Assembly: GCA_947095535.1 (NCBI GenBank)
Contig: OX352772.1
Coordinates: 101,548,307-101,612,306, forward strand
Direction: 5' to 3'
Origin: Poecilobothrus nobilitatus
Taxonomy: Eukaryota; Arthropoda; Insecta; Diptera; Dolichopodidae
Length of the DNA: 64,000 nt
Made by a program: the position numbers and the translations under genes. Position 1 is the first letter of the stretch, and the number at the start of each line of letters is the position of its first letter. The notes under the pieces were generated by a model, which was not told the origin of the DNA, did no database searches, and worked only from the letters and a program-made list of their open reading frames with translations. Of the stretch, positions 3,545 through 29,036 are shown piece after piece.

Positions 3545-5135
3545 TTATACCCGTACGATAGGATCGGGTATAATAAAATTACTCCTCCGTTTGTAACACC
3601 TCGAAATAAGTGAGCTAGATATACCTTCAAAGGTATGGATCGGATCAGAAAAAAATTCTAAGACTTTTGAGCCATGTCCGTCCGTCCGTCGGTCAGCACG
3701 CTAACTCAAAAACTAAGAAAGCTAGAATCTTGAAATTTACACAAAATATTCTGGGAATAATTTGTAGGTTCCCTATTTTTATTGGTTGAGTTTGGACCAA
3801 ACCTTAGGGTAGCTCTTGAACACTTAACTTTTAGATCCCCACAATTTTTTTGAAATAGAGCTATGAAATTTTAACTGCTGATAGATATCACAAAAATATT
3901 AATTTTATTTTTAATAACTTTTTTTTGTAACCCCACCCGTTACGGAGCTACAAGCCCCAAAGGTTCAAAAAAGCTCTATATTTAAATTGTTATAGCACAA
4001 GTTGTATAAAGTATTTTTTCATTTTGAAAACTCCAAACGATTACTACTTTTATTAGATTTAAAAGTATATATACAATAAATATATAGTTGTGACATACGG
4101 TGTCTTAATTTACCGTTATGCGAAACTAAAATTTTGCAAAATCCTTTAACCCTTCTATCTTCTAAACGGTTTAAGTTAGAAACTTGAAATTTTGACAATA
4201 AGTATAAAAATAAGTATGAGTCATTTCAGAAATTTTTTTTGTATCACCCCCCGTTTAGGAGCTGTAAGGGGTCAAAAACTGAAAATTTCCTATTTTTAAA
4301 CACCTGTAACTTGAACACCTGTTAAAATTTTTTTGAAGTAATACACAAAAATTAAAGCTTCAACATTATACTCTTATTTCTGTTAACAACTTTTTTTAAT
4401 AATATAGGGTTACTTTATAATTGACGAAAGTGTTACTTGATTTTTTCATATTTTCTAACAAATTTCTTTAACGAATTTTTTCCATTTTGTTTTACTCGAT
4501 AATTTGAAATTGTTGAGGATATAATGCGTAGTACAAAAAAATGTAATTAAATAAACAACATAACGGTTGCTTGAAGAATTTTTATTTATATGATATTGAT
4601 ATATATACATACTTATATAATATCATGTTTATTTACATTATCGTATATGTCACTAGTGAATGAATGATTAGAGTATAGATGTATATTATATAGCGCCGTA
4701 TTTACATACATATATGTATTTTATTGTACTTATAAGAAATTATTCTGTCAATGGAATATTTAAATATAATATATAATAATATTTAAAATTATATTTACTA
4801 TTTTGTACTAAGTAAATTTAATATAAATTTACCGCTTAGTATTAAATGGTACTATAGAATATATGAAAAAGTTTTGGATTGATAATCGTTATGTGGAAAG
4901 TTAAAATCTGTTTTTGAAGAATGTATAAATATATAGTTTGAATATATATACAACCCATAGTTCTAGAAATTATGAAATTTACCCAAATTATTTTAAAATA
5001 CTAAAATATTAAAAAAAATAATATTGTAAGCAGAGATATAGATAGATATTGACAGGCTGTGAACATACTAACGGTTCGTAGGGGTATCTAAGAGTTGACA
5101 AAGGCAACTGTATTCTTCCTCGTTTTCTTATTTAT
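3545..5135. repeat. Second mini-me/DINE-like repeat, inverted relative to the one at 768-2527
   Basis: It begins with TATACCCGTACGATAGGATC then GGGTATAATA, and has GTCCGTCCGTCGGTCAGCACG near 3675. It ends at about 5100-5135 with GGGGTATCTAAGAGTTGAC and TTCCTCGTTTT, which is the reverse complement of the start of the 768-2527 repeat. The interior has recurring 'GTTACGGAGCTACAAGCCCC'-type blocks (about 3945 and 4250), showing internal tandem structure. No protein is encoded. Confidence 0.5.
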
Positions 5136-5259
5136 TTTCATTTCCTCGTTTTATTATGTTTAAAATCTCTTATTATTATATTTCTATTTAAATCTAAGTT
5201 GAAACATTTTTATTACGATGACCAGATGTTAAAATTGCAGGAATAGTGAGACTAACTTT

Positions 5260-5412
5260 TTATGTACGTCTTGGAAATCTACTTCTATCACGTCCGTATT
5301 CTCCACAATGACTTTTCCTTGCTGATCTGTAAGCATATTCCCATACATGTATAACGTGAATTTCTTGTTTAATGTTGAAGTGAACTTTTTTAGTTTTGTT
5401 ATTTAAATTCAT
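5260..5412 (-). CDS. 50-aa PPP1R15/GADD34-like PP1-binding domain protein
   Basis: ATG at 5412-5410, TAA at 5262-5260. After about 8 residues the product has a K-V-H-F motif (RVxF-type PP1 docking), then an H-V-x-x-V-W-type block, an A-R-K block and R-D-R-S-R-F-P-R-R near the C terminus. This order matches the C-terminal core of animal PPP1R15 (GADD34/CReP), which brings PP1 to phosphorylated eIF2alpha and restores translation. Here the domain is almost the whole protein, as in the short GADD34-like proteins of some large DNA viruses. The Trp usually found in the G-P-W-E-type segment is Cys. It lies 27 bp downstream of, and co-oriented with, the decayed 188-aa Polinton gene, so it is probably cargo of Polinton B. 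Polinton A has no counterpart. Function is inferred. Confidence 0.6.
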   Translation of the reverse strand: MNLNNKTKKVHFNIKQEIHVIHVWEYAYRSARKSHCGEYGRDRSRFPRRT

Positions 5413-5439: not shown

Positions 5440-6508
5440 TTAATCTAACATTTTTTCTTTTAAAAGATACATCTAAACGTTATAACAATTTTGAACGACA
5501 CATCTGAAATTGTTGTTTTATAAGTGTATAGGATAATTTGAGTTAAAGTTATCAATCATTTGCAATGACGGCGAGTTTCTGCTTAGATCTTCTATTTTAA
5601 CACTCTCAATGTAATTTTGAAGAAATATATTTTTTGTTCTCCTTTAACATACATTTTTTCAGCTGACTTTAAATAGTGTTTTAATATACATTTTACATCT
5701 AAATATTTAGATATGAAATATAATAACAACTAAACCGTTATTCTATTTAAGTCCATTTATTTTACTTTCAGTATTGCTTATTTTATTCACTAGTATTGCT
5801 TATTTTATTTCATATCCTAACTAAGTTTCTTCTGCGGAGGATAGTGCTTTGAAGTGATACACAGTTGGAATTAAACTTCCTTTTTGAACTATGGCTAACT
5901 CTTTTAGGAAATATTGCTTTCATGAATGAATGAAGAATGAATGAATGAAGAATGAATGAATGAAGAATGAATGAATGAAGAATGAATGAATGAAGAATGA
6001 ATGAATGAAGAATGAATGAATGAAGAATGAATGAATGAAGAATGAATGAATGAATGAATGAAGAATGAATGAAGAATGAATGAATGAATGAATGAAGAAT
6101 GAATGAATGAATGAAGAATGAATGAATGAAGAATGAATGAATGAAGAATGAATGAATGAAGAATGAATGAATGAAGAATGAATGAATGAAGAATGAATGA
6201 ATGAAGAATGAATGAATGAAGAATGAATGAAGAATGAATGAATGAAGAATGAATGAATGAATGAAGAATGAATGAATTAATGAAGAATAAATGAATGAAT
6301 GAAGAATGAATGAATGAATGAAGAATGAATGAATGAATGAATGAATGAATGAAGAATGAATGAATGAATGAAGAATGAATGAATGAAGAATGAATGAATG
6401 TAGAATGAATGAATGAAGAATGAATGAATGACGAATGAATGAATGAAGAATGCTCCATAGAATAACTAAATTTACATTTATATTCACTTCGGGAAACGTT
6501 CTTTTCAT
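5440..6508 (-). pseudogene. Decayed Polinton 188-aa accessory gene (element B)
   Basis: The start (MKRTFPEVNINVNL...) and the downstream part (5440-5920) align with the intact gene at 24539-25105, including the same C-terminal K-E-K-M-L-D and TAA. Between codons about 20 and 55 of the gene, a large GAATGAATGAA-type microsatellite (5925-6452) replaces normal sequence. Other stops and indels follow in the 3' half. The 232-codon ORF seen across the repeat (Ser-Phe-Ile-His-rich) is an artefact of the microsatellite and not a real protein. See the entry for 24539-25105 for what can be said of the intact protein. Confidence 0.8.
5925..6452. repeat. GAAT-based microsatellite (about 15-bp higher-order unit)
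   Basis: About 530 bp of GAATGAATGAATGAA-type units: runs of GAAT separated by GAA, mostly 15 bp, with some 19-bp variants and few point changes. It lies within the decayed 188-aa gene. The minus strand contains no stop in two frames, which makes long spurious ORFs. Confidence 0.95.
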
Positions 6509-6533
6509 ATAAATATAGGTTAGCAGAGTTATT

Positions 6534-7248
6534 TTTTAACTAATACAACTATGCTGTTTTACAAGTTTACTATGATGATGGCGGGTCCATCATGCTGTGT
6601 AAAACCACTTTTATTCATAATTTAATAAAATATAAAAAAGAAAATATACAACCACATATTAATAGAATAATTTCGTGTAATCCAGACAAAAATGTCGTTC
6701 CAAAATAAATCAAAGATGTGGAATATATTAACACTATTCCAAATTTTAATCATAATCAAAAACCTTTGTTAATTATTATCGATGATATGCTGTTAAATTC
6801 TCATGATAAGTATATATGTGATCTATTTACTAGAGGATGACATCATAGAAATTTATCTGTAATATTGGTAACACAAAATGTTTTTCACCAGGTTCAATTT
6901 TCAAGAGATATTTCAATTAACTGTAAATATTGAGTAGGTACTTTTCAAAAATCCAAGAGATAAATCTAAGTTAATATCTGCACCTCTAGCTTGCCAAATA
7001 TATCCCAATCAAATCAAAGTATTTGAAAAAGTATATAATAATGTGACGGCAGTCCCATATGGCTTTATATTAATAGATCTTACTCAAGACGTCAATGATA
7101 TATTTCGATTAAAAAGTGATGTATTTGGAAAAGGTTTGTGTTATATTAGAGATCAGATAGGTATTAGAGATCAATTAGAATAATTTGGACAGGAATATGA
7201 AAGTTTGAAGACCAATCGACATATATTGCACCTATTAAAAAGCTCTAA
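6534..7248 (+). pseudogene. Decayed Polinton packaging ATPase (element B)
   Basis: Homologous over its full length to the ATPase at 28321-29019. The P-loop region reads G-P-S-C-C and then loses one base (about 6600), shifting the frame exactly at the Walker A lysine/threonine. The Walker B region (I-I-I-D-D-M) is still recognisable at about 6775-6790. Several in-frame stops follow (for example near 6708 and 6838), and there is a short direct duplication at about 7148-7180. It ends with the same K-K-L-stop as the intact copy. Confidence 0.8.
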
Positions 7249-7520
7249 ACCAAAATTTCAGAAAGTAATTATAACACATTGTGACCTGAAGTAATAATTA
7301 ACATTTTGCGAAATCTCTTTAAATATTTTAAAAGGTAATTATAACCTGAGTAAAAAAGCAACAACCCAATTACCAAAGTATAAAAAAGAATTAAGATCAC
7401 TTAGTTGCCGGAAAATATCTACAAATAGCAAAATAAAAATCATTATTCAAAGTGGTGAATTTTTACCTACACTTCTTCAGTACAGTACTATCAGGGATAA
7501 TCGGAAATTTTATAAAATGA
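7192..7520 (+). pseudogene. Decayed Polinton 111-aa hydrophobic-tail protein (element B)
   Basis: Overlaps the end of the ATPase remnant in another frame, as in Polinton A. It aligns with the gene at 23553-23888 (LHLLKSSKPKFQKVII...). Frameshifts and a stop are visible around 7290-7300, and the conserved R-G-G-F-L-P region is degraded. It ends in TGA at 7518-7520, overlapping the ATG of the next gene. Confidence 0.7.
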
Positions 7521-8083
7521 ATAATACAACATTTAATAAAATGATAATTTTAAAACCTGAGATTTATTAGAAAATGTAGCAAAATGCGGACGTTGAACTT
7601 AATGAGTTGGATAAAAATATGAATAAAATATTGTTAAATAAACATCTCACGGACACTCAAAAATGGTATTTATGCAGACAAAATCTATTTAAAATAAGAA
7701 ACAAAAATAGAGTACTTCCTAAAAATAAAGAGGAGAAAGTAAAAAGTACGGAAACAAAAGTTACTCAAACTCGTGAAAAACCAATGTATATAGATACGGA
7801 AGCTCAATTGCATTTTCCTGAATATAAGAATGTTGGAATACAAGTTTATCTTGAAGAAGAAGAAGTATATGAAAAAGAAGCTATTGAAGTATTTGATGAT
7901 GAAATTCCAGAAAATGTTTTAACAAAAAGCCCACCAACGAAAAAAGAGGAAACTATAAATAGAAAAGAGTTGAATAATTCATCAAGACGTGTTTAAAGGT
8001 CAGCAGCAGGTAATACTCAAACAGAACTTAATTTTCCAATTCGTAAAAATAAATTCGCAAGCTCATGGGCAATATATAAATAA
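7517..8083 (+). pseudogene. Decayed Polinton 229-aa gene (element B)
   Basis: Aligns with 22867-23556, starting with M-N-N-T-T-F-N-K-M-I. It has stops near 7568 and 7577, an open middle part (7607-7996), an internal deletion of about 40 codons after E-N-V-L-T-K, and a stop at 7994-7996 before the conserved C terminus. Function of the family is unknown to me. Confidence 0.75.
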
Positions 8084-8084
8084 A

Positions 8085-8932
8085 TGATGAATTTTATGTC
8101 ACTTTATTCGTTGATTCATCCAGAAAATTCATTATCATCTTTTACAAATAAAATGAATAAATAAAGTGTAATTTAAGGTGGAAAGTCGGTATTTTAGAAA
8201 TGTATGTTAATGATTTCGTTCCAAATGTGTATTGTGAAAAATGGGAAAAAAGTACTCAAATATTTATACACCTTTAAAAGATATAATAGAAGTTCGAACA
8301 TTATATATTCCATACATAGGAAAACAAATGATATGCCACTGGAAAGTTCTACTACTAACACTAATTCAAAATATACACCCATTTAATAGGATTACAAGAA
8401 AAGAAGTTGAACGACAGTTGATTTGGCGAATTTTTAATTTTATAAACGATGAAGTTCATTATACACAATCAGCAAAAGTTGAGGAGATGCCTAAAAATAT
8501 AAGTTACACTACAATATGTGTTACTAGGCCTAAAATAGATATAAAATTAAGAGTAAATTACGCTTATACCCTTGAAGGACTTTTTCAATCAAGTATCTTC
8601 GAAAGTTACAGATTTTAAAAAATATAAATCACGTGTAATAGAAGCTTTCAAAACTTTAATAGATAGTGTACAGTTGATACCAATTATTAAACCAGATATA
8701 TTTTTTATATACACAGATATAATTGAACCGTAAAAAATAGGAGATAAAGATGTAAGGTGTTTAAGATCTGTTAACATAAAAAATGCTTTCACCGATACTG
8801 TAAAAGAATTGAGTAATATTCAATATTGCAACGTGAAGAAATCATTTAATAACAGTTCATTAGTGATGCAAAATAAGCTTTTCCAATAGTTCATTTCCAA
8901 CAAAAATTGTATTACATTTTAAAAAAGTATAA
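8085..8932 (+). pseudogene. Decayed Polinton minor capsid (penton-like) gene (element B)
   Basis: Aligns with the intact minor capsid gene at 21968-22885 from N-D-E-F-Y-x-x-L to the C-terminal K-I-V-L-H-F-K-K-V and stop. The reading frame is broken several times; the longest open part is 8241-8618, with a shift near 8590 and a small deletion near 8860. Confidence 0.75.
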
Positions 8933-8969
8933 ATAAAAGCGATTTTACAAAACTATATATTATTTCATT

Positions 8970-9205
8970 TTATTCATTACGGAGAGAATATACTATAGGT
9001 ATTATTTTATTCAATCTGCTAGAGGACTTGATCATATCGGCCCTTTATAACATTCAAACGTATCTTTTCAAAAAAGTCGTGGAATGAGTTAGCTTTTTGA
9101 GGAACTTTTTAGATATTTGAAACCATTATTTACTTCAGGCGCTGATATTTTGAAAAAAGAGGTTATTAACTCTGGTATCCATGCTTTATCTGATATTATA
9201 ACCCT
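8970..9205 (+). pseudogene. Truncated Polinton 146-aa capsid-associated gene (element B)
   Basis: Matches the first 75 or so codons of 21481-21921 (R-x-Y-Y-R-Y-Y-F-x-Q-S, G-P-L, F-R-Y-L-K-P-L-F-T-S-G and S-D-I). Similarity stops abruptly at about 9205, which marks the break point of a deletion that removed MCP, protease and integrase of element B. Confidence 0.65.
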
Positions 9206-9882: not shown

Positions 9883-10856
9883 CCCATTCGATAAGGATAG
9901 GGTGTATTAAAATTGCTTCTCCGTTTGTTTCACTAGGTACCTTCGGGTAGCTCTCGAACACCTAACTTTTAGATCCCCACATTTTTTTGAAATAGAGCCA
10001 TGCAATTTTAACTGCTGATAGATATCATAAAAATATTAATTTTATTTTTTACAACATTTTTCTGTAGCCCCCCTGTAAACCCATTACGCTGCTACAACCC
10101 CTCAAACTTTGAAAAAGCCCTATTTTTAAATTCATGTGTCTCATGTTCGGATTTTTTCAATTAGTAAACGTCCTTCGACAGTTATTTTTTTTAAATTTTT
10201 AAATTAGTATCAAAATTATACAATTTTTTTAAATTTAGTATTTAAATTTACCGTTATGTGAAAACCAAATTTTGCATAATACTTCTACCTTCATAGCTCC
10301 GGCACGCTTTTAAATAGAGGCTTGAAATTTTAAGAAAAGAAGAAAATTTTTTCGGACCACTCCCTATTTATGAGCTATTAGGGCTCAAAAATTGAAAATT
10401 TCCTATTTGTAAACACCTGTAACTTAAGCACCTGTACACATTTTACTTCGGAAAAATATAAAAATTAAAGCTACAGTAATATATTTTTACGTGTGTTAAA
10501 GGTTTCTTACGTGTGTTAAAGGTTTTTTTCATAACTCCGGAATGCCTTTAGATAGGAACCTGAAATTTTGAGACAAGAGAGAACTTTTAGAATTAATATA
10601 AGTTCCCTTAGAAATATTTTGCACCACTCCTGTTTAAAAAATATTAAGGATGAAAAATTTAAAATTTGCTATTTTAAGGCACCTGTACAAATTTTCTTTC
10701 GCAAGACATAAAAATTAAAGCTCCAGTAATATATTTTTACGTGTGTTAACGGTTTTTCTTAGTAATACAGGGTTCCGGACTTACAACCCCTCAAAATTCC
10801 AGAAAAGTCATATTTTCACATCTTTTATACCCGTACGATAAGGATCGGGTATATTA
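9883..10856. repeat. Mini-me/DINE-like repeat(s)
   Basis: Begins TATACCCATTCGATAAGGAT with internal blocks shared with 3545-5135 ('GGTAGCTCTCGAACACCTAA', 'TTTTGAAATAGAGCCATG'). Related internal blocks repeat at about 10300-10500 and 10530-10750. A second TATACCCGTACGATAAGGAT end starts at about 10827 and abuts the polB fragment. No protein. Confidence 0.5.
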
Positions 10857-11106: not shown

Positions 11107-11320
11107 AGTAGATAGGTAGGCACTTGGGCCAGACAGGTCAGTAGGTCAAGGCCACCCGGAAGTAGGTCAAACTGTAATTAGGTCAGACAGGAGTAGGTTA
11201 ACGACGTAAAATTAGGTCAGACAGGCGGCGGCGACCGTCAGACAACTCTTGTTATTTATAAGGATTGTATACTTGTTTTAAGTAATAGGTAAACATGGAA
11301 AAACAGTAAGAAAAATATTT
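11107..11320. repeat. Left terminal inverted repeat of Polinton A
   Basis: The first about 45 bp are a near-perfect inverted match to the right end (26030 leftwards). Beyond that, similarity continues with indels, including the GGCGGCGACCGTCAG / GGCGGCGATCGTCAG block and the GTATACTTG...TAAGTAATAGG module. It holds one TCAAGGCCA site (11146-11154) beside ACCCGGAAGT. Confidence 0.9.
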
Positions 11321-12641
11321 TTTTTATGCTTGCAAATTTTAAGATGTTGTTGTTTGTTGTTTTTTTATTTGTTGTTTTTTCTTTCGTTTTTTTTTTATGA
11401 AGTATTTAAAGAAGAGGAAAGAAAAACCATTAATTAATTGTTATGTAAGAATGTTGAAAAAAAAAACAAGAAATCAAAAATATCTAACGTGGTACAGGTC
11501 TACTTCTTATTGATGTATACTTGGCTTAAGTAATAGGCGCATATGAAAAGTAGAAACAAAAAATGGTTAATGAATGTAAAAGGAAAAAAATAAAAAAAGT
11601 TTAAACGTACAAGATAAAACAATTTTAAAAGGTACAACCCATCTTTAAAATTCATAAAGAAAAAGTGCAAACCTGTTTTTCTGTCTACATAATGATCAAA
11701 CCATTGAAAAAAATTTATGCGATTTTAGATGTACCTAACTATTTGTGTTGTTTTTTTTTTTTTTTTTTTTTTTTTCTACTTTAACTATTTAAAGAAGTTA
11801 AAAGAAAAAAACTAATGATTATTGTCGGTGTGTCATGTAAGATATTTTTTGTTTGTAAGAATGTTCAAAAAAAAATATGAATGAAAAGAACTTAACGACT
11901 AACATGTTGCTTAAGTGCATTGTATGTTGCCTAATCTGTGAAGAATAAAAAAAGAAAAAAAATCAAGTCAGGTTAATTGTATTTGTCACCTATTTTGAAA
12001 ACAAGAATATAAAAATAAAACAGATTTATTCTGTGTTCAAGAAAAAAATATGAATAAAAAGAAAACAACAAGAAATCAAAAATATCTAACGTGGTACAGG
12101 TATACTTCTTGTTGATGTATACTTAGCTTAAGTAATAGGCATATATGAAAAGAATAAGAAAAAATACTTTATAAAATTTAAAGAGAAAAATGAAAACAGA
12201 ACAAAAGGATGTGTAACTACGTTTCTTTAAAATTTTAAAACTAATTTTAAAAAAATTAAAAGAAAAAGTGCAAACTGGTTTTTAAATGTTACAGAAAGAT
12301 TCAACCTTGACAAAATTGATGCAATTTTGAGATGCTTTTATTTCTTCTTGTTATCTTTTTTCTATGAAGTATTTAAAGAAGATGAAAGAAAAAAATTCTT
12401 AGTATCACCGTATAAGATTTTATTGTTATGTAAGAATGTTGAAAAAAAAACAAAGGAATAAAAGCGATTCAAAATAAGTTACGAGTAATTGCTTTTTTTA
12501 AAGTAACAAGCAAGACATTATGTATAAATTGTGTAAAAAGTTAAAAAATTGTTAATAGAGTGAAAATTCTAGGATTAGAAACGTTCGCGATTGGTTGTCT
12601 TAATAAAATAAAAATCGGAAATTAAAAAAAAAGAAATTAAA
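11321..12641. repeat. Left subterminal region with tandem modules
   Basis: The block AACAAGAAATCAAAAATATC...TAACGTGGTACAGG...TAAGTAATAGGC occurs at about 11464-11545 and 12067-12145, and a shorter form at 11268. Between them are recurring 'GTGCAAAC(C)TG', 'TATTTAAAGAAG' and 'TGTAAGAATGTT' blocks. The right end (25110-25850) carries the same blocks in inverted order. No ORF is supported here; polB starts at 12642. Confidence 0.75.
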
Positions 12642-15600
12642 ATGAATACAGAAAAATTCACAATAAAATCAATAAAATCAGTGAATGTAAAACGATTCAA
12701 CATTTTTGGAAAAAAATTGGAGTTTATAATAAATGCAGTACCAGACTACAAAGATCCAATAGATTGGATTAAAACCGGTATTGAAGAATTATTCAGCAAT
12801 TTACTTGAAAATGTTGATCCTACTGACAAAATTGGTGTCACTTTTGGATGCCAAAGTTTTCATGAACGTGGTCCAGCCTGGATCAATTTTAAAGAAGCAA
12901 AAGATCTTGACATTTCGGAAATTTGGGAAGTTATTTCAAACATTTTTCAAAGCAACTCCGAAGGGTTATCTACAGATACGTTCTGTATAAATGTTACATA
13001 TATACGATATAAACAGTCGTGTTTCTTTTGTAAATCATCTCCAGCATGTGACGTAAATTTTCCAAATATTAAATGTGATGTATGCAATCGAAGTTTTAAA
13101 GGTCAAACTTGTTTTGATAATCATAAAGCAACATCATCTACAAATAAAAAATCTATTTGTACTCTTATAAATTCCTGTACAAAATGCTTTAAAGTATACA
13201 GAACCGATGTAAATCATATATGCTATGGACATTTGTGTAAAAACTGTAATATAAATGTAGCTTCAGACCACCAATGCTTTATTACACCGTGTAAAGAATT
13301 AGCTGAACTTAAAAATATATTATATATTTTCTACGATCTCGAAACAACTCAAGATGATATCATCGGGGAGAAACTTCATGAAGGTGTTGCAATAGGGGAT
13401 ATAATTGAACATCAGCCTGATTTATGTATTTTTGAACAACGTTGCACGCATTGTATATTGTCTAATGTTGAAAGATGAAATTTTTGTGGACTTCGAGAAC
13501 ATGTGTTGAAACAAAATCCAATACAAATGTTCTTAGAATATATACTCAACCAAAGAAAGATATTTCATAAAGTTGTAGTTATTGCACATAACGGACAAGC
13601 ATTTGATAATCAGTTTTTATTAAACTATATCTTAGAGAAAACCATCATCAAACCAAAACTAATTATGAGGGGAACAAAGATAATTTTAATGCTGTTAGAT
13701 AACGTGAAATTTATTGATTCACTAAACTATTTTCCAATGCCGTTATCTAGTTTAACGAAGGCATTTGATTTAGATATAAATTTAAAAAGAGGATATTTTC
13801 CTCATATGTTTAATCGTAAAAATAATATAAAATATAATGGAAAGTTACCCGATCAGAAATATTACTGTTATAATTCAATGAGTGCATCAGAAAGAAAACA
13901 ATTTCTTGAATGGTATGAAGAAAATAAAAACAAGTCTTTTAACCTCCAAAAGGAACTTGTAGAATATTGTATGAATGACGTAAAAATTTTGACAGCAGCC
14001 TGTATTAAATTCAGACAGCTATTTTTGGAAGAATGTAAGGTTGAGCCATTTTTAGAGGCCACTACAATTGCATCAGCGTGTAATTTGGTTTTTAGAAGGA
14101 ATTTTTTAAAACCGTATACAATTGGACTTATACCTAAACAAGGATATCGCTTATCAGAAAACCAGTCAATCATTGCCATAAAATGGTTAATGTGGGAAGA
14201 AAAACGAAGAAAAATAAAAATTCAGCATAGTGGTAACGGAAAGGAAAAAGTAATTTTTGGTCTTCGTGTTGACGGATATTGCACAGACACAAAACAAATA
14301 TTTGAGTTTTATGGCTGTTATTACCATGGCCATCCAAAATGTTTCAAAAATAATAATAATAAAAAATATGAAACACGTTATGAGGCTACATTATCCAAAG
14401 CCAATAAATTACGCTCTATAGGTTATCAAGTAATTGAAAAGTGGGAGTGTGAATTTCGAAACGAAATGAGATCAAAAGAATACATAGAATTTTTCGCAAA
14501 ATTGGAGAACGAAAGTTTGATACCACTAAAACCACGTGATGCGTTTTATGGCGGTAGAACAGGAAACACAAGAACATATTATAAATGTGCGCCTGGTCAA
14601 AAAATAATGTATATAGATATATGCTCACTATATCCTTGGGTGTGTAAATATGGAAAATTCCCAGTGGGTCATCCAAAAGTTCATGTTGGAAAAATTGAAT
14701 GCAATAAATTAAATTTAAATGATACTGAAGGATTAATAAAGGCATTGATACTTCCCCCAGAAAAACTCCATCACCCGGTTTTGTCTATAAATCAAAATAA
14801 TAAGCTAATGTTTTCCTGCTGTCAAACATGTAGTTTGGAAATGAATAATGATGACTGCTCGCATGACAATCGTAGTAGGTCAATTTTAGGAACGTGGGTT
14901 ATAGATGAAGTAAGAGAAGCTGTTAAACAGGGATACAAAATTGTGGAAATATACGAGGTATGGGAGTATACTGTTAAACAATTTAATCCCCTTACATCAC
15001 AACAACAAATGATGAACAAGTTCCTTAAAATTAAACAAGAAGCTTCTGGCTGGCCTAGCTTTTGCAAAACACCAAAGGAAAAGTGCAAATATTTAGAAAA
15101 ATTTTCGAAAGTAGAAGGCATAAATTTACAGTTTAACGATATAGAAAAAAATCCTGGACTTAGATCATTAGCTAAGTTAATGTTAAACTCTTTCTGGGGT
15201 AAATTTGGACAGAGAGAAAATCAATCAAAAACTGAAATAATAAATGAGCCTTATGAATTATTTACTATTCTTACTGATCCTTCGAAGAATGTAAATCAAA
15301 TAACTCCAATAAACGAAAAAACAGTTTTGGTAAATTGGGAATACAAAGAAGAAACAGCTGAATCATTATTAACAGTTAACGTTTGCATAGCTGCTTACAC
15401 TACCACACAAGCTCGTTTAAAATTGTATTCTTACTTAAACAATTTAAAAGAACGAGTTTTGTATTACGATACAGATTCAATAATATATGTAGCACGTGAA
15501 GGAGAATATAACCCTCCAACTGGAGTTTTCATAGGAGATATGACAGATGAGCTTGAAGAATATGGAATTGGAAGCTATATTACAGAATTTGTTAGTGGTG

Positions 15601-15911
15601 GTGCAAAGAACTATGCATACAAAATATATAGTACCAACTCCAAATGCGAAAAAACTGTTTGCAAAGTGAAAGGTATTCGTTTAAATTACAACGCTTCACA
15701 AGAAATAAATTTTGGCTCTATGAAACAATTAGTTAAAAAATTAAACAACTTTCAACAAATAAATATAACATTTCCCAGTATTCGCCGAACATACGATCAC
15801 AGAGTCATCACTGTTCCTGAAATAAAGTCATATCGAATAAATTCCAGAAAACGAGTTTTTGCAGATGATTATACTTCAGTTCCTTATGGCTTCAAAAAGA
15901 AAAAAATTTAA
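12642..15911 (+). CDS. polB: Polinton family B DNA polymerase, one in-frame TGA
   Basis: Protein-primed DNA polymerase that would replicate the element; about 1,089 codons, usual for Polintons. In order: a Cys/His-rich region (residues about 125-220, with C-x-x-C-K and C-x-x-C pairs); exonuclease I Y-D-L-E-T at about 230; TGA at codon 279 (13476-13478); exonuclease II H-N-G-Q-A-F-D-N at about 315; exonuclease III Y-C-M-N-D; a V-D-G-Y...F-Y-G-C-Y-Y-H-G block; polymerase motif A D-I-C-S-L-Y-P; motif B K-L-M-L-N-S-F-W-G-K-F-G; and motif C Y-Y-D-T-D-S. The TGA lies where a Cys would fit a C-x-x-C-G pair (residue before N-F-C-G), and the frame is otherwise open. It is either a one-base nonsense change or a base-call error. 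All catalytic residues downstream are intact. Confidence 0.93.
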
Positions 15912-16030
15912 AAAATTATTGTTAATATGTATATTGTAAAAATTTTGTATTAAACTATTAAATTACAGCATTAAACAAAATCTTTTAATTTTACCGTTTT
16001 TAATTTTCAGAATATAGCCAAAAAATTATT

Positions 16031-16045
16031 TACATATATATATCA

Positions 16046-16081
<36 letters not shown>
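16031..16081. repeat. TA microsatellite
   Basis: Interrupted (TA)n run between polB and the integrase. Confidence 0.9.
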
Positions 16082-16082
<1 letters not shown>

Positions 16083-16128
16083 CTGATTTTATTCAAATTC
16101 ACATTTGCAGTTTAACTCTTCAATAATA

Positions 16129-17051
16129 ATGTCAAAAGCACAAATAGTATCTGAAATTCATCGTCCAGTTAGACGTAGATTTCGGAGACGAAAAATATCT
16201 CAAAGAGGGTTAAATGATACATGGGAAATTGATCTTGTAGATATGTCGGCCTATCAAAAAGTAAATAATGGATACAAGTTTCTCTTAACTGTTATCGATA
16301 TATTTTCAAAATATGCATATGCCGAAAAAGTTAAATCAAAGGCAGCAGATGACGTAGTTAAAAGTATGGAAAAGATTTTTAAAAGGGAGGGGAAGTCTCC
16401 AAAAAATATTCATTCTGACCAGGGAAAAGAATTTTTCAACAAAAATTCCAAAATTTAATGAAAAGCTATAAAATAAATCACTATCATACTTATTCAGAAA
16501 TGAAGGCTAGTGTTTGTGAAAGGTTTAACAGAACATTAAAATCAATTATGTGGAAACAGTTTAGTTTACAAGGAAATTTTAAATGGATAGAATTTTTACC
16601 AAAACTAATTGAAAAATATAATAACACAAAACATAGTACAATTAAGTTAAAACCAAACCAAGTTACATCACAAAATGAAAAACAAATTCTTCGTTCAATT
16701 TATAATTACCCTAAAATATTTAATAAGGGAAAATTTAATGTTGATGATTTTGTTAGAATTGCAAGGTCTAAAGGTACTTTTCAAAAAGGATATGAACCTA
16801 ACTATTCAACTGAAGTTTTTAAAATAGCTTTCAAAAACAAGACAGACCCGATTACATATAGTTTAAAAGATTATAAAAATAAATTAGTTCGTGGTGGCTT
16901 CTATGAACAGGAACTGACTAGTGTCAAAAACCCCAATGCTTATTTAATTGAAAAAATTTTACAACGAAAAGGCAATAAAGTATATGTGAAATATTTAGGT
17001 TTTGATAATAGTCATAATCAATGGATAAGTAAATATCATATTCTTTCATAA
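16129..17051 (+). CDS. int: Polinton integrase (DDE, chromodomain), one frameshift
   Basis: Retroviral-type integrase that would insert the element and make its 6-bp duplication. A basic N-terminal stretch (R-R-R-F-R-R-R) is followed by the rve core: D in W-E-I-D-L-V-D-M, D in H-S-D-Q-G-K-E-F, and E in S-V-C-E-R-F-N-R-T. A C-terminal chromodomain follows (Y-L-I-E-K-I-L...V-K-Y-L-G-F-D...W-I). A single-base indel in an A-rich stretch near 16440-16455 moves the frame between the second and third catalytic residues, so the two open parts are 16105-16458 and 16458-17051. First ATG at 16129, preceded by an acceptor-like TTTGCAG. The stop is followed by tandem repeats. Confidence 0.9.
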
Positions 17052-17480
17052 AAAGTGTAATAAGAATTTATGTAGAAAATTTTTTCTTAACTTTAGAGCA
17101 CTATTAAATGCAACAATGTTGTAAAAATGTTGTAAAAATGGTAAAATAGAAAAAATAAAAAGAGAAAAATATTTACTAATAAAAATAAATAATTTAGGAA
17201 TAGGTAAATAAAAAAATAATATTCTTTCATAAAAAAGTATAATTAGAATTTATGTAAAAGATTTTTTCTTAACTTTAGAACACTGTTAAATGCAACAATG
17301 TTGCAAATATGTTAATAGAAAAAATAAAAAATAGAAATATATTTACTAATAAAAATAAATAATTTAGGAATAGGTAAATAAAAAATAATATTCTTTCATA
17401 AAAAAGTATAATTGGAATTTATGTAGAAGAGTTTTCTTAAATTTAGAACACTGTTAAATGCAACAATGTTGCGAAAAATG
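17036..17480. repeat. Tandem repeat starting at the integrase stop codon
   Basis: A unit of about 170-180 bp beginning ATATTCTTTCATAAAA occurs at about 17037, 17219 and 17389 (2.5 copies). Each includes TTAAATGCAACAATGTTG and AATTTAGGAATAGGTAAATA. The first copy includes the last codons and stop of the integrase. Confidence 0.85.
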
Positions 17481-17717
17481 TTATATAAAAAAATTATAGT
17501 TTTATTATTATCAATTAGAATTTATTACATTAATAAACAACTTACTTTACAACTTTTTGTTTTTAATTAGTTTTCTTAAGGATTTTGATTTCTAAACATT
17601 GATAATACAATTTTTTAGAAGAAAAATTTAGTATAAATAAAGTCGAATTTTTCTTAAGATATGTCAATTCAAAGACAGAGCTCAACATAATAATAATACA
17701 GAAAAAAGGAAGCAAAA

Positions 17718-18281
17718 ATGGAAAACACAGCAGAAATTTTCGCCTACGCTCAGCAAATAGAGCCAACACAGGAGTTAGCCCCAATTAAACGGAAAAGAAT
17801 AAGAACTCAACAGGAATCGCAGCCACTTCATCAACAACAACATCATCATCATCATCATCAACAACAACAACAACAACCATAACAGCAACAACATCAACAA
17901 TTTCAACAACAACAACAAGAAGAAATCATTCTTCTTCAAGAAGAAGAACCACCAACAAAAAAAAGCTTCAAAGAAGCTTTTAATAACAAAAATTTGGAAA
18001 CTAGAAAAAGTTTCCTAAAAACTAAAGATATGGAGCAAGATGCTCTATATCATATAATAAATGTTAAGCAAATAAAGACCATTTATGGTCTTAAGTGGGT
18101 CTTTGAGACCCGCAATTTAATTATATTTGTACCTCAAAAATATTCTGATATTTTTGAGAATTTAGATTTTGTAAAAGAAATAAAAGAAAAAGAACATTTT
18201 GTATATAAAGATAAAAATTTAAATTTAAATATTATAGATATATCTGAGTCGTTTGGTAAAATATATGCAAATTACCAATAA
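17718..18281 (+). CDS. Polinton Q/H-rich protein with conserved C-terminal domain, in-frame TAA
   Basis: One frame runs from ATG 17718 to TAA 18279-18281 (187 codons). It has a short N-terminal part with a basic K-R-K-R-I-R patch (possible nuclear signal), a His run and a poly-Gln tract, then a conserved-looking domain (ALYHIINVKQIKTIYGLKW...IFVPQKYSDIF...). The TAA at 17880-17882 lies in the CAA repeats and is one base from CAA. The domain, with its x-T-x-Y-G and L/V-P-x-x-Y pattern, occurs in small proteins of other insect Polintons. A single-strand DNA-binding role is possible but I cannot show it. It is third in the plus-strand half, after PolB and integrase. Confidence 0.65.
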
Positions 18282-18429
18282 AAGATGTAAATTGGTTTAT
18301 AGTTATATAAGTTTTTATTATTCATAAATAAATATAAATTTCAAAAAAGGTATAAATTTCTTTTATTTAGTTGCTTTATTTTTCAGATTCATGTTTAAAT
18401 GTACTTAATGTTAATATGTATATGTAGTT

Positions 18430-18620
18430 ATAAATTGGATTTATTTAATTTTCTTCGTAAAAACACAGGTATTTCATAAAAGAGCCGAGAAAAATTACAT
18501 CATACATTAAATTTTTGAACTGGAATAAAAATACTTACTTTTAACTCTACTTTTAACCTTGTAACATTCTTTTCTTTACAGATCTATATGAATTTCTTTT
18601 ACTATTTTAGATCTTGGCAT
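18430..18620 (-). repeat. Partial duplicate of the 3' end of the 181-aa gene
   Basis: This stretch repeats 18755-18895 (GTATTTCATAAAAGAG...GAGAAAAATTA...TTTTTGAAC-GGAATA), about 320 bp downstream in gene sense. It contains only the last 45 or so codons, diverged and no longer open. The remaining sequence between 18282 and 18743 shows nothing else. Confidence 0.75.
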
Positions 18621-18743
18621 GATTTTTAATGGGATATCAGTGATGAAGAAGGAGATCCAGATTATTTAGAAATTATACCAAATTTATAAAATAACAAATT
18701 ATACCTAATTTATAAATAATGAAATAAATAACAAATTATATAG

Positions 18744-19289
18744 TTACAAAATTGTTTTATTTAATATCTTTTTTTTTTTTTGTAAAAATACAGGTATTTC
18801 ATAAAAGAGTCGAGAAAAATTAAATCGTATATTAAATTTTTGAACCGGAATATAAATCTCTTCTTTCAACTTTGCAACATTCTTTTCTTCACAGGTCTTT
18901 ATGTATTTTTTAACATATTCCTTTACATTTGGCTCTGCAGTTTTATTATATGCAACTACTGCATGTAGGAAATCAATCAAACTGTAAAACTCGTCAGCTT
19001 CCTCTTTGTTAATGCTAAGATTCTGTCCTACTGTAGATTTTAATCCACTTTGTAAACATAATTTTGAATTTTTAATTGACTGCTTGGAAAATTTTTTATG
19101 AAATAGGTCATAAAATTTACACCATTCATGATATTTTAAAATAATTGGTTTCATTCCAATCCAATGAAAAACACTTGCAACTTCAAAAAAATCTGTGTCA
19201 AATCCGACAACTATTTTTAATGTGTGACTTCTGTTGAGAAAGTATGTATAACTCAGCAACAAATTAATGCTAGGACTTTGCTCTTCCAT
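18744..19289 (-). CDS. Polinton unknown protein, 181 aa
   Basis: First gene of the right-hand minus-strand block in map order, so the last to be read; 26 bp downstream of the protease gene. I do not recognise the family. The N terminus has a moderately hydrophobic segment (L-L-L-S-Y-T-Y-F-L). Then come G-F-D-T-D-F-F-E-V, W-C-K-F-Y-D-L-F and a Lys-rich region at 125-145, ending in a basic tail with K-K-K-K. No transmembrane helix or enzyme motif is evident. The last 45 or so codons have a diverged duplicate at 18430-18620. Confidence 0.75.
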   Translation of the reverse strand: MEEQSPSINLLLSYTYFLNRSHTLKIVVGFDTDFFEVASVFHWIGMKPIILKYHEWCKFYDLFHKKFSKQSIKNSKLCLQSGLKSTVGQNLSINKEEADEFYSLIDFLHAVVAYNKTAEPNVKEYVKKYIKTCEEKNVAKLKEEIYIPVQKFNIRFNFSRLFYEIPVFLQKKKKILNKTIL

Positions 19290-19315
19290 TATTTTAATTA
19301 CACTAAAGTTTATTA

Positions 19316-19810
19316 TTAAATGTTATATCTCTTAGGAAGACATGATTGAGAAATATTATAATTTTCAAATATATGGTGAAAAGTATTTATTATATTTTTG
19401 TCATTTTCTATATGATTTTCTTTATTAAATTGTTTTAAAAAAGCGTTCATACTATAACCGCAACATCTATACCATGTATAAACACAACAATATTGCCCAC
19501 AAACATCTGAATAGTTACTTTGTAACTGTTTCTTATTAAAAATTATACATTGATTTTTTAAGTAACTTAAAATTTCTAATTTATCTGGTTTTCTACCAAA
19601 CGAATCAAAATATTCAACACAGCCATTCTTTGGCTTAAAAATAGCAAACCAATGTGTTCCCGGATCTTTTGATTTATCAGTGTTTACAATTAAAAAAGTT
19701 TGTTTTTCAATTATTCTGGGGAGTTGATCCAGAGCAAAAACTCCTTTAAAAAATTTACGTGTGTGTATGTTACATCTTAATACGTCACTTATCTCTAGGG
19801 TATTCATCAA
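19316..19810 (-). CDS. pro: Adenain-like cysteine protease
   Basis: Capsid maturation protease of the Ulp1/adenovirus protease clan, expected to process virion proteins. 164 aa. The catalytic His is in D-P-G-T-H-W-F-A (residue about 53). The acidic residue of the triad is probably in V-E-Y-F-D-S-F-G (about 70-77). The oxyanion Gln is probably in the Q-S-N-Y region and the nucleophile Cys in D-V-C-G-Q-Y-C (about 105-110). Overlaps the upstream 110-aa gene by 4 bp (ATGA), which suggests coupled expression of the minus-strand block. The frame is intact. Confidence 0.9.
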   Translation of the reverse strand: MMNTLEISDVLRCNIHTRKFFKGVFALDQLPRIIEKQTFLIVNTDKSKDPGTHWFAIFKPKNGCVEYFDSFGRKPDKLEILSYLKNQCIIFNKKQLQSNYSDVCGQYCCVYTWYRCCGYSMNAFLKQFNKENHIENDKNIINTFHHIFENYNISQSCLPKRYNI

Positions 19811-20139
19811 TCAAATTGATTTAAGTCATATACTTTAGTTGTTTCTTTAATATAATTAGATAAAAACTCTTTTTTGATTTTTTTATTTGTTATAATAACA
19901 TCAAATTTTTCTAGTATTTGACAGAGCTCTTTATTTATTTTATCGTTGTACACAGTTCCAAAAGAGTAATTATCAAAATTATCATTTATAAAATCCCTAG
20001 TTGGAAATTTATACTTGAGCTCTTTTACAAACTTTTTACAAGGTTCTTTAAAACCAACTATACAAATATCTTTCGCAAACAAGGTATTATTATCATCACT
20101 ACAAAATGTTACATCCAGAAGTGCACAAGACAGTGACAT
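19807..20139 (-). CDS. Polinton unknown protein, 110 aa
   Basis: Lies between MCP and protease; its stop overlaps the protease ATG. No family recognised. The layout (hydrophobic strand L-L-D-V-T-F, then K-D-I-C-I-V-G-F, a middle N-x-x-Y-x-F-G, and a C-terminal I-L-x-K-F-D-V-I-I-T-N-K-K-I-K-K-E-F-L segment) resembles, by eye, the layout of the 188-aa protein at 24539-25105 (V-D-L-Q-F...K-E-L-A-I-L...I-Y-V-K-G-E-Q-K-L-F-L). An RNase H-like fold is a guess that needs a profile search. Confidence 0.7.
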   Translation of the reverse strand: MSLSCALLDVTFCSDDNNTLFAKDICIVGFKEPCKKFVKELKYKFPTRDFINDNFDNYSFGTVYNDKINKELCQILEKFDVIITNKKIKKEFLSNYIKETTKVYDLNQFD

Positions 20140-20176
20140 TTTGTCAAATATTCAAATTTACTTTTATATATGCTAT

Positions 20177-21478
20177 TTATAGGTTTAAGAATATATTTCG
20201 GTTTTTATCAATTTGTAAACTTGCATCAAATTCTCCATAAACAATAGCAGTCAGTGTAGATGTAAGTGGTTTTGATAGTCTTTCCTCAATTCTAACTGTA
20301 CCTTGATTTAGTAGACCTTGACACACTTCATTTCCTGATGAATCTGGAGTAAAATCAAAAGCTAGAATGAAAAACCCATTACTAAACATGGTTTTTGTTA
20401 TCTGATGACCTTTATCATTATGGTAAATTCCAGTTCCCGAAAAAAGTGTACTGTATGCTCTTGTACAGCAATTATTTTCATCTGAAAAACTGGTTTCAAT
20501 TGCTGAATTAGGTATTTGAACACCATTTACGTTTAACACAAATTGTGAAATATCAAAATGTTTAAAATTGTATGGGTTTTTTGACCTTTTTCCAGAGTAA
20601 CCTGTATTTTCTGTCATGGAAAAAATGATTGTGTTTAGCAAATGTCCAATAAAAACATTATCAAGTGATATTGATGAACTATTCTGTGGAATGGTAAAAG
20701 TTTTTACCTCTACCCGTTTGTAATTGTATTTGGCATTAGTTTTTTCCAATACAGCATTATGTGCTAATAGCACACTAGGATTAATTGTTACATGTCTCAT
20801 AAATAAAGTGGCTTCTAAAATTTTTAGTTGAGATTCATCAGTATCATCTGCAAAGAGGTAAAAATCTGGTTTTTCTAATGTTAGGACAACTCGAACATCG
20901 ACATTGTTTATGAGAAGTGTAGGTTGGTTAAACATATCTAAATGTAATTTCCCCATAAGTTCTACTACATTGCTATTTTGGTATAATTTTTGACGTTCTT
21001 TTGAACCACTATTATCTGTTTTTGCTATATTTGGCTTATCTAGCATCCATCCACCACACTCCAAATGCGTTGTAGCGGCATCCGTACGATAATTTAACAA
21101 TGATTCAATATAAGCTCTGTAATGATAATTGCCATCTGATGGAGATATATTCTTTCCATTTAGTTGAACATTACATTGTTTTATTAATGAATGTAACATA
21201 TTATTAACCACACTTGGTTGTTGTATAGGTGTTCCATCAGTTTTTTTATCTTTATTCCATTGAGTTCCATCTTTTTTTAAAATTTGTACTTTTAATTTTA
21301 GATATGTCGAAGACAAGCCTCTATCTGTATCACCGTGCCCTAGTGAAACAAATTCTATGACAGACGGATTATCTAAAGAAGCAATAGGGTTATAGGAAAC
21401 CTCTTCAGATCGTAAAATACTTGACTGAATAGGCTGTGTTTTAAAAATATCAAGCTCTGATTTCATACATTCAATCAT
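20177..21478 (-). CDS. mcp: Major capsid protein (double jelly-roll)
   Basis: 433 aa, frame intact. The N terminus (M-K-S-E-L-D-I-F...Q-S-S-I), the S-L-x-N-P-S-V-I-E-F segment, the N-N-M-L-H-S-L-I segment with V-x-L-N-G-K, and Y-H-Y-R-A-Y-I-E-S-L-L-N-Y match my memory of the F54H12.2-like proteins. Those are recognised as the double-jelly-roll MCP of Polintons, related to the MCPs of virophages and other eukaryotic PRD1-adeno-lineage viruses. It would form the pseudo-hexameric capsomers. It sits between the 110-aa gene (37 bp) and the 146-aa gene (2 bp). This gene is missing from the decayed element B. Confidence 0.85.
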   Translation of the reverse strand: MIECMKSELDIFKTQPIQSSILRSEEVSYNPIASLDNPSVIEFVSLGHGDTDRGLSSTYLKLKVQILKKDGTQWNKDKKTDGTPIQQPSVVNNMLHSLIKQCNVQLNGKNISPSDGNYHYRAYIESLLNYRTDAATTHLECGGWMLDKPNIAKTDNSGSKERQKLYQNSNVVELMGKLHLDMFNQPTLLINNVDVRVVLTLEKPDFYLFADDTDESQLKILEATLFMRHVTINPSVLLAHNAVLEKTNAKYNYKRVEVKTFTIPQNSSSISLDNVFIGHLLNTIIFSMTENTGYSGKRSKNPYNFKHFDISQFVLNVNGVQIPNSAIETSFSDENNCCTRAYSTLFSGTGIYHNDKGHQITKTMFSNGFFILAFDFTPDSSGNEVCQGLLNQGTVRIEERLSKPLTSTLTAIVYGEFDASLQIDKNRNIFLNL

Positions 21479-21480
21479 AA

Positions 21481-21921
21481 TTATTCAAAAATATCTTTTT
21501 GTTTGTTTTTGTTATTAACTTTGCGTCGCTTCGACGTAAAATAATTCAAATTATTAATGAGAGGTCTTTTTATAGATTTTCTTCGTTTTCTTTTGCCTTG
21601 TCCATACATTTCATTGAGTTTCCGAACTGCACCTCGTCTTACATTTTTCATTATCTCTTTACTTCGATCTTGAACCACTTCTTTTACATTTGCCCCTGTG
21701 GCAATATCAGATAATGCATTAATACCAGAGTTAATAACCTCTTTTTTAAATATATTAGTTCCAGACGTAAATATTGGTTTTAAATATCTAAAAAGACCAC
21801 CGAAAAAGCTCCCTAACCCTCGTCCCTTTTGGTAAGGTACAATTGAGTGTAACAAAGGACCAATATCCTCAAGACCTTTTCCTGATTGAACTAAATAATA
21901 TTTGTAGTACGCTCTCTCCAT
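21481..21921 (-). CDS. Small basic capsid-associated protein, 146 aa
   Basis: The N-terminal third is Gly-rich and amphipathic (G-R-G-L-G-S-F-F-G-G-L-F-R-Y-L-K-P). The C-terminal third is very basic with nuclear-signal-like clusters (K-R-K-R-R-K, S-K-R-R-K). This hydrophobic-plus-basic design recalls small core or membrane-active proteins of adenoviruses and is common in Polinton capsid blocks; the exact family is not certain. Starts 46 bp after the minor capsid gene and ends 2 bp before MCP. A truncated homologue is at 8970-9205. Confidence 0.75.
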   Translation of the reverse strand: MERAYYKYYLVQSGKGLEDIGPLLHSIVPYQKGRGLGSFFGGLFRYLKPIFTSGTNIFKKEVINSGINALSDIATGANVKEVVQDRSKEIMKNVRRGAVRKLNEMYGQGKRKRRKSIKRPLINNLNYFTSKRRKVNNKNKQKDIFE

Positions 21922-21967
21922 AATGAATAAAATAAAATAATATATAGTTTTGTAAAATCGCTTTTAT

Positions 21968-22885: not shown

Positions 22886-23556
22886 GAGCTTGCGGATTTA
22901 TTCTTACGAATTGGAAAATTAAGTTCTGTTTGAGTATTACCTACTGCTGACCTTAAAACACGTCTTGATGAATTATTCAACTCTTTGATATTTATAGTTT
23001 TTTCTTTTTTCGTTGGTGGGCTTGGGCTATCTAAAGGAACAGTTATAATGTCCCCTGTATCAGTTTCAAAAATTTGTACATTTTGATTTCTAATTGATTT
23101 TCTTTTTCTAAGGCGTTCTCCAACTGAAGCAGCTGACAATGCTTTTGTTAAAACATTTTCCTGAATTTCATCATCAAATACTTCGTCATCAGCTTCTTTT
23201 TCATATACTTCTTCTTCTTCAGGAACAACTTGTATTCCTACATTCTTATATTCAGGATAATGCGATTGAGCTTCCGCATCTATATACATTGGTTTTGCAC
23301 GAGTTTGAGTACCTTTTGTTTCCGTAATTTTTACTTTCTCCTCTTTATTTCTAGGAAGTACTCTATTTTTGTTTCTTATTTTAAATAAATTTTGTCTGTA
23401 TAAATACCATTTTTGAGTGTCTGTTAGATATTTATTTAACAATATTTTTTTCATATTTTTATCCAACTCATTTAATTCAAAGTCTGCATTTTGTTTCATT
23501 TTCTCATAAATCTCGGGTTTTAGTATAATCATTTTGTTAAATGTTGTATTATTCAT
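22867..23556 (-). CDS. Polinton unknown protein, 229 aa (acidic/Ser-rich middle)
   Basis: The N-terminal part has the L-D-K-N-M-K-K-I-L pattern followed by T-D-T-Q-K-W-Y-L-Y, seen in a family of Polinton proteins located beside the capsid genes. The middle is acidic (E-E-E-E-V-Y, D-D-E-V-F-D-D-E), with a G-E-R-L-R-K-R-K-S basic patch after it. The C terminus is basic and probably disordered. No function known to me. Overlaps the minor capsid gene by 19 bp and the 111-aa gene by 4 bp (ATGA). An identical copy is at 27364-28053 and a decayed one at 7517-8083. Confidence 0.8.
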   Translation of the reverse strand: MNNTTFNKMIILKPEIYEKMKQNADFELNELDKNMKKILLNKYLTDTQKWYLYRQNLFKIRNKNRVLPRNKEEKVKITETKGTQTRAKPMYIDAEAQSHYPEYKNVGIQVVPEEEEVYEKEADDEVFDDEIQENVLTKALSAASVGERLRKRKSIRNQNVQIFETDTGDIITVPLDSPSPPTKKEKTINIKELNNSSRRVLRSAVGNTQTELNFPIRKNKSASSWTTYK

Positions 23557-24521: not shown

Positions 24522-24538
24522 TGTTAACCTATATTTAT

Positions 24539-25105
24539 ATGAAAAGCTCTTTTGCCGAAGTGAATATAAATGTAAATTTATTTATTCTAATGAGTATTCT
24601 TACACAAACCGTCGACATGGTTAAACGAGTTCTCATAGTTGACCTACAATTTTTACAAGGAAATGAAAAGCAATATTTCCTAAAAGAATTAGCCATACTT
24701 GAAAAAGGAAGTTTAATTCCAACTGTCTATCACTTCAAAGCACCGTACCCCTCAGAGGAACTTAGTCCGGATATGAAATATAATAACCAGTATTGCGAAA
24801 ATAAAATAAATGGACTTAAATGGAATAACGGTCTAGTTGAATATTTAGATGTAAAATGCATATTAAAACACTATTTAGAGTCAGCTGAAAACATTTATGT
24901 AAAAGGAGAACAAAAACTATTCCTTCAAAAGTACATTGACAGTGATAAAATAGAAGATTTAAGCAGAAACTTGCCGTCATTACAAAAGATTGATAACTTT
25001 AAATCAAATTGTCCTATACACTTATTAAACAACAATTTCAGATGTGCTGTTAAAAATTGTTATAATGTATATATGTATCTTTTAAAAGAAAAAATGTTAG
25101 ATTAA
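24539..25105 (+). CDS. Polinton accessory protein, 188 aa (possible RNase H-like fold)
   Basis: Divergent from the ATPase (17 bp between start codons), so a shared bidirectional promoter is likely. The frame is intact. After about 28 residues comes a hydrophobic strand V-L-I-V-D-L-Q-F-L followed by K-E-L-A-I-L. Then H-F-K-A-P-Y-P, N-G-L-K-W-N-N-G-L-V-E-Y, I-Y-V-K-G-E-Q-K-L-F-L and two Cys-containing segments near the end. Similar proteins occur widely in arthropod Polintons; the Asp strand and the K-G...K-x-x-F-L segment suggest a DnaQ/RNase H-like fold, but this is my inference. If translation starts at the internal Met near 24619, the protein is 161 aa. Duplicated at 29037-29603; decayed homologue at 5440-6508. 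Confidence 0.75.
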   Translation: MKSSFAEVNINVNLFILMSILTQTVDMVKRVLIVDLQFLQGNEKQYFLKELAILEKGSLIPTVYHFKAPYPSEELSPDMKYNNQYCENKINGLKWNNGLVEYLDVKCILKHYLESAENIYVKGEQKLFLQKYIDSDKIEDLSRNLPSLQKIDNFKSNCPIHLLNNNFRCAVKNCYNVYMYLLKEKMLD

Positions 25106-29019: not shown

Positions 29020-29036
29020 TGTTAACCTATATTTAT

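What the first reader, a model, noticed from the sequence alone, without database searches (positions are those of the whole stretch)
5260..5412. GADD34/PPP1R15-like mini-protein next to Polinton genes
A 50-codon ORF too short for usual gene finders is made almost only of the PP1-binding, eIF2alpha-phosphatase-targeting core: K-V-H-F docking motif, W-containing block, A-R-K, then R-D-R-S-R-F-x-R-R. It lies 27 bp downstream of and co-oriented with the decayed Polinton 188-aa gene. Compact GADD34-like proteins are known in some large DNA viruses as counter-measures to PKR-type translation shut-off. A Polinton with such a gene would suggest that these elements met, or still meet, host translational defence as viruses do. 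I do not know of a report of this in Polintons.
Basis: partly seen in the sequence, partly recalled or inferred. Interest (0 to 1): 0.9.

Follow-up and report, generated by a model that had tools for sequence, protein, structure and literature searches.

The report
Broken stress-response mimic beside a Polinton
Next to the last gene of a decayed virus-like transposon (a Polinton) in this genome lies a broken copy of the short protein core that animals, and a few large viruses, use to switch protein synthesis back on during stress; it hints that some Polintons once carried such a counter-defence gene, but this copy is dead and only one was seen.

Summary
The 50-codon ORF is real (minus strand 5412-5260, 27 bp after the stop of a decayed Polinton 188-aa gene, same strand) and PPP1R15/GADD34-like beyond chance: 23.6 bits with a PPP1R15A+B profile, against 4.9 for the next of 1839 window segments and at most 11.0 in 150 simulated windows. 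It is not a mini-protein by design: past its stop the same frame runs on for 21 codons that match the end of the PPP1R15 core in register (shuffle p 0.0003 against PPP1R15B, weak against PPP1R15A). So it is the front of a ~70-codon core broken by an in-frame stop, with Cys at the invariant Trp582 position. Neighbouring Polinton genes are equally broken (17 stops, 22 frameshifts in 1057 codons). The younger Polinton lacks it: similarity ends at the 188-aa stop codon. Best reading: fossil of a compact PPP1R15-core gene in the terminal arm of one Polinton lineage. Main rival: a host PPP1R15 fragment that ended up there. Other copies would decide; the genome search did not complete (16 requests, last) and the protein database was off.

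The parts
5260..5412 (-). 50-codon ORF: PP1-binding half plus the start of the actin/substrate half of a PPP1R15-like core
   Evidence: translation; PDB phmmer PPP1R15A E=0.0041; 23.6 bits with a PPP1R15A+B profile against 4.9 for the next segment
5260..5262 (-). in-frame stop that interrupts the core
5197..5259 (-). 21 codons after the stop, same frame, matching the C-terminal end of the PPP1R15 core in register
   Evidence: score 13 to PPP1R15B and 2 to PPP1R15A; shuffle p 0.0003 against PPP1R15B; 29 of 34263 window 21-mers as good; no PDB hit on its own
5194..5196 (-). next in-frame stop, close to where the PPP1R15 core ends in animals
   Evidence: core 555-621 of human PPP1R15A, homology dropping off at 622, from PMC8500838 and PMC4394351 passages
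5440..6508 (-). decayed copy of the Polinton 188-aa gene, split by a 15-bp tandem array (5922-6452)
   Evidence: 82.5% identity of 5440-5920 to 25105-24667; 5 stops and 4 frameshifts in 163 aligned codons; array
6446..9200 (+). rest of the decayed Polinton right arm: packaging-ATPase gene and the genes behind it, all five that were compared being broken
   Evidence: 86.9-92.4% identical to the young Polinton, 77.4% in the last gene stretch
24539..25105 (+). intact 188-aa gene of the younger Polinton, without a PPP1R15-like ORF behind it (duplicate at 29037-29603)

Best explanation
The ORF is the front part of a dead, compact PPP1R15-core gene that belonged to the terminal arm of one Polinton lineage, between the 188-aa gene and the terminal repeat. 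Inferred function of its intact ancestor: like the known viral PPP1R15 mimics, it would have held host PP1 through K-V-x-F and the conserved Arg, brought in G-actin with the C-terminal helices, and so dephosphorylated eIF2alpha to keep translation going when host eIF2alpha kinases fired during Polinton replication. Shown: sequence relatedness, position, strand, spacing, the in-frame stop and the decay of its neighbours. Inferred: membership of the Polinton, origin by capture from an animal host, and the function. The copy present now most likely does nothing; if the 50 residues were made they might bind PP1 without directing it to eIF2alpha.
For: PPP1R15 relation. Same strand, 27 bp behind the 188-aa gene; gaps or overlaps between adjacent ORFs in the young Polinton are -71 to 67 bp (8 pairs, some ORF starts not fixed). 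Only 8 residues precede the K-V-x-F motif, as in compact viral forms (short DP71L is 70-72 residues with V16 and F18 in the motif; PMC5346070), whereas mammalian PPP1R15s have more than 600 residues and Drosophila's is about half that (PMC8500838, PMC4394351). Polinton identity is 17/20, 17/20 and 20/20 in the last 60 bases up to the 188-aa stop and 6/20, 8/20, 8/20 after it: a break at a gene boundary fits a swap of terminal modules in a living element better than random truncation. Neighbours are decayed to a degree that fits one stop in about 71 codons (2.6 disruptions expected, P of at most one 0.26). Longest A run behind it is 6 (down to 4401), so no sign of a retrocopy tail.
Against: One copy only. 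The younger Polinton lacks it. Beyond it no terminal inverted repeat was recognised: a loose comparison gave only AT-rich matches, the best 62% identical, E=2e-5 and in the reverse orientation, so nothing shows that the element extended past it. Pfam PP1c_bdg misses. The test of the post-stop piece was run after the resemblance had been seen by eye, and it is strong against PPP1R15B only. No relative in IMG/VR scans with the ORF or two PPP1R15 patterns nor in prokaryote genome contigs; none of these scans had a positive control that hit.
Confidence: 0.58

Rival explanations
1. A piece of the host PPP1R15 gene (last exon or truncated retrocopy) was joined to the broken end of a Polinton, or inserted behind the 188-aa gene, and was never a Polinton gene.
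For: Only the conserved core is left and the frame ends about where animal PPP1R15 cores end; Polinton similarity stops abruptly and does not recognisably resume; the young Polinton lacks it.
Against: The join would have to fall, by chance, right behind a stop codon and bring a fragment in the same orientation with an ATG just before its motif; no A tract behind it (longest run 6); by eye no AG with a pyrimidine tract, as a splice acceptor would have, in the 27 bp before the ATG.
Confidence: 0.3
2. The 50-codon ORF is a still-used mini-protein, taken over by the host or kept by the element, that binds PP1.
For: 50 codons are open while neighbours are broken; K-V-x-F, the PP1-pocket Arg and the R591/F592/R594/R595 equivalents are kept.
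Against: Chance of no disruption in 50 codons at the neighbours' rate is 0.16, so openness is no sign of use; Cys at the invariant Trp582 position; the lost C-terminal part is needed in DP71L for eIF2alpha dephosphorylation, though not for PP1 binding (PMC5346070); similarity continues past the stop, so the stop is a breakage.
Confidence: 0.08
3. Chance resemblance of an AT-rich ORF.
For: Pfam PP1c_bdg gives no hit.
Against: 23.6 bits against at most 11.0 in 150 simulated windows, plus an in-register match behind the stop.
Confidence: 0.02

Closest known systems
Animal PPP1R15 (GADD34/PPP1R15A, CReP/PPP1R15B, Drosophila dPPP1R15), conserved core 555-621 of human PPP1R15A
   Same: K-V-x-F, Trp570, Arg578, R-D-R-S-R-F and R-R in identical spacing; in-register L-T and H-R residues behind the stop
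   Different: no N-terminal region, in-frame stop inside the core, Cys at invariant Trp582, Val at the Trp616 position
Viral compact PPP1R15 mimics (DP71L of African swine fever virus, ICP34.5 of herpes simplex virus)
   Same: core only, with a few residues before the PP1 motif, as in short DP71L (PMC5346070 passages)
   Different: sits beside a Polinton in an animal-type genome; broken; no such gene in a Polinton came up in the paper searches
Polinton/Maverick elements
   Same: younger copy: Pfam hits for PolB, A32-type ATPase and, below the cut-off, adenovirus-type protease; the decayed copy has the same right arm
   Different: the terminal arm behind the 188-aa gene does not align to that of the younger copy

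Membership tests
PPP1R15 core | K-V-x-F PP1 docking motif | tested here: met
   K-V-H-F, residues 9-12
PPP1R15 core | conserved Arg for the PP1 Arg pocket (human 578) | tested here: met
   Arg34 in exact register; role from PMC4394352 passages, mouse numbering 571 there
PPP1R15 core | invariant Trp582 | tested here: not met
   Cys36; importance of the Trp from PMC8500838 passages
PPP1R15 core | substrate/actin residues R591, F592, R594, R595 | tested here: met
   all four present; roles from PMC8500838
PPP1R15 core | uninterrupted C-terminal part to about residue 619-621 | tested here: not met
   in-frame stop at the position of residue 597; the rest only behind it
PPP1R15 core | Pfam PP1c_bdg (PF10488) profile match | tested here: not met
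   no hit for the ORF; the 42-residue PPP1R15A counterpart 23.6 bits, cut-off 26.1
PPP1R15 core | promotes eIF2alpha dephosphorylation with PP1 and G-actin | not testable with these tools
   bench assay needed
Polinton gene | lies between the terminal inverted repeats | tested here: inconclusive
   no repeat recognised left of 5440; similarity of the decayed element to the young one ends near 9200 on the other side
Polinton gene | same strand and tight spacing with a Polinton gene | tested here: met
   27 bp behind the 188-aa stop; -71 to 67 bp between adjacent ORFs of the young element (8 pairs)
Polinton gene | present in related copies | tested here: not met
   absent from 2 of 2 other right arms in the window, which are duplicates of one another; rest of the genome not searchable

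The most novel reading that the evidence does not exclude
Some Polintons carry, in a swappable terminal module, a compact PPP1R15-type activator of eIF2alpha dephosphorylation, so these 'transposons' faced host translational shut-off as viruses do; this locus is a fossil of one, and intact copies exist in other elements or species.
Probability: 0.42. Interest if true: 0.85.

Novelty: new member of a known kind. Interest (0 to 1): 0.55.

Why it matters
Whether Polintons are real viruses in animals is open: for Mavericks, particles 'have not been observed' (PMC8097293, start of abstract in the listing). A gene of the kind that large DNA viruses use to undo host translational shut-off would be indirect evidence that they replicate against a cellular stress or antiviral response. 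It also gives a precise, cheap search: PPP1R15 cores behind the 188-aa gene of related Polintons.

Tried and rejected
Pfam and PHROGs scans of the ORF: no PPP1R15 hit. The post-stop piece alone against PDB sequences: none. Viral-contig scans: ORF (17), two PPP1R15 DNA patterns (31, 49), 188-aa protein (32), ATPase (33), PolB (41), the capsid-position ORF 20177-21484 (42): no relative; prokaryote genome contigs with the ORF: none (43). AlphaFold2 without relatives: 188-aa protein mean pLDDT 42.5, too poor to search with (69); ORF mean pLDDT 71.1 with one helix 4-35 (70), given no weight because the core is described as natively unstructured (PMC4394352 passages). Fold searches were not run. Passages of PMC6431247 were read for earlier reports of Polinton cargo and not used. 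Rejected: chance resemblance; a 50-residue gene by design; retrocopy (no A tract).

Full report
What is there. On the minus strand, 5412..5260 encodes 50 residues and a stop. Read in the same direction, the stop codon of a decayed copy of the Polinton 188-aa gene lies at 5442-5440, 27 bp before the ATG. The intact 188-aa gene is in a younger Polinton in the same window (24539-25105) and in a duplicate of its right arm (29037-29603).

Is it PPP1R15? phmmer against all PDB sequences finds, with E up to 10, two distinct sequences, both PPP1R15A (E=0.0041 and 0.006). Residues line up without gaps: 17 of 43 identical between human 554 and 596, including K555, V556, F558, W570, A577-R578, R587-D588-R589-S590-R591-F592 and R594-R595. 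A profile of the PPP1R15A and PPP1R15B stretches printed ranks this segment first of 1839 six-frame segments in the window (23.6 bits, next 4.9); the best of 150 windows simulated with the same dinucleotide frequencies reached 11.0. Pfam PP1c_bdg gives nothing, but the PPP1R15A counterpart stretch itself stays below that profile's cut-off. The relation is real; the Pfam miss is reported as a miss.

Is it a mini-protein? No. Behind its stop the same frame stays open for 21 codons (5259-5197). Placed where the first part dictates, this piece scores 13 against PPP1R15B and 2 against PPP1R15A (BLOSUM62), with I, L, T, H and R shared with one or both; 0.03% of 100000 shuffles and 29 of 34263 open 21-codon stretches of the window do as well against PPP1R15B (0.022% and 20 of 34263 for the sum of both), and the other frames score below zero. 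The resemblance had been seen by eye before the test; only the register was fixed beforehand. On its own the piece has no PDB hit. The frame then ends at 5196-5194, near the point where PPP1R15 homology ends in animals (residue 621-622; PMC8500838 and PMC4394351, passages read). So the whole ~70-codon core is there, broken once. The position of the invariant Trp582, which matters for substrate dephosphorylation (PMC8500838, passages), holds Cys. In the viral mimic DP71L, residues 52-66 are needed for eIF2alpha dephosphorylation but not for PP1 binding (PMC5346070, abstract and passages); by the alignment they correspond to the part behind the stop here. The 50 residues, if made, might therefore hold PP1 without serving eIF2alpha (inference).

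How decayed are the neighbours? Six genes of the young Polinton (1232 codons as delimited, 1057 aligned) compared with the decayed arm show 17 stops and 22 frameshifting indels; differences by codon position are 90, 85 and 126. One gene stretch (64 codons, 8/7/26) supplies about half of the third-position excess. The decay is thus mostly neutral. At that rate 50 codons stay open with probability 0.16 and 71 codons carry at most one disruption with probability 0.26: the core looks as dead as its neighbours, and the open 50 codons are no sign of selection.

Is it a Polinton gene? For: strand, 27-bp spacing (-71 to 67 bp between adjacent ORFs in the young element, 8 pairs, some ORF starts not fixed), a start codon 8 residues before the PP1 motif, and a break of similarity exactly at the 188-aa stop codon (20/20 identical just before, 6/20 just after). 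Because the coding parts are still 77-92% alike, an unrelated arm behind the stop means an exchange or loss of a module, not slow drift (inference). Against: the young arm has no such gene; beyond the core only AT-rich matches of about 60% identity to the young arm were found, the best in reverse orientation, so no terminal repeat is recognised; and there is one copy. A host PPP1R15 fragment joined there by accident cannot be excluded.

What could not be done. The search of the window's own genome did not complete in 16 identical requests (last), the large protein database was switched off, and the viral and prokaryote collections gave no relatives. The host species, the host's own PPP1R15 gene and copy number are therefore unknown here; dN/dS could not be measured.

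Literature. Full-text searches for Polinton with GADD34, adintovirus with GADD34, and Maverick with PPP1R15 found 0 papers each; Polinton with eIF2 found 3, of which I saw only titles and the starts of abstracts (two on giant viruses, one on a sea anemone transcriptome). Broader searches were seen as listings only, apart from the five papers named by their calls. Only open-licence PMC papers are covered. Viral mimics in African swine fever virus and herpesviruses are known (PMC5346070, PMC8500838).

Noticed in passing
5922-6452: A 15-bp tandem array (about 35 copies, ATGAATGAATGAAGA) has expanded inside the decayed 188-aa gene.
   Followed up: partly
11107-26030: A nearly complete younger Polinton: PolB in two frames (Pfam), integrase-like and capsid-position ORFs (named by eye), protease (Peptidase_C5, below cut-off), A32-type ATPase (scanned in the duplicate copy), imperfect terminal inverted repeats.
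   Followed up: partly
24401-26300 and 28902-30696: The right arm of the younger Polinton is duplicated at 99.9-100% identity over two pieces, so the second copy is recent.
   Followed up: partly
24539-25105: The 188-aa Polinton protein matches no Pfam or PHROGs family at the cut-offs used; a low-confidence model is mixed helix and strand.
   Followed up: partly
38974-45351 and 52350-57662: Two gypsy/errantivirus-like elements with long gag, pol and envelope-like ORFs (judged by eye).
   Followed up: no
3801-4386 and 9939-10499: A 72% direct repeat lies on both sides of the decayed Polinton arm; it may be an old satellite into which the element went.
   Followed up: no
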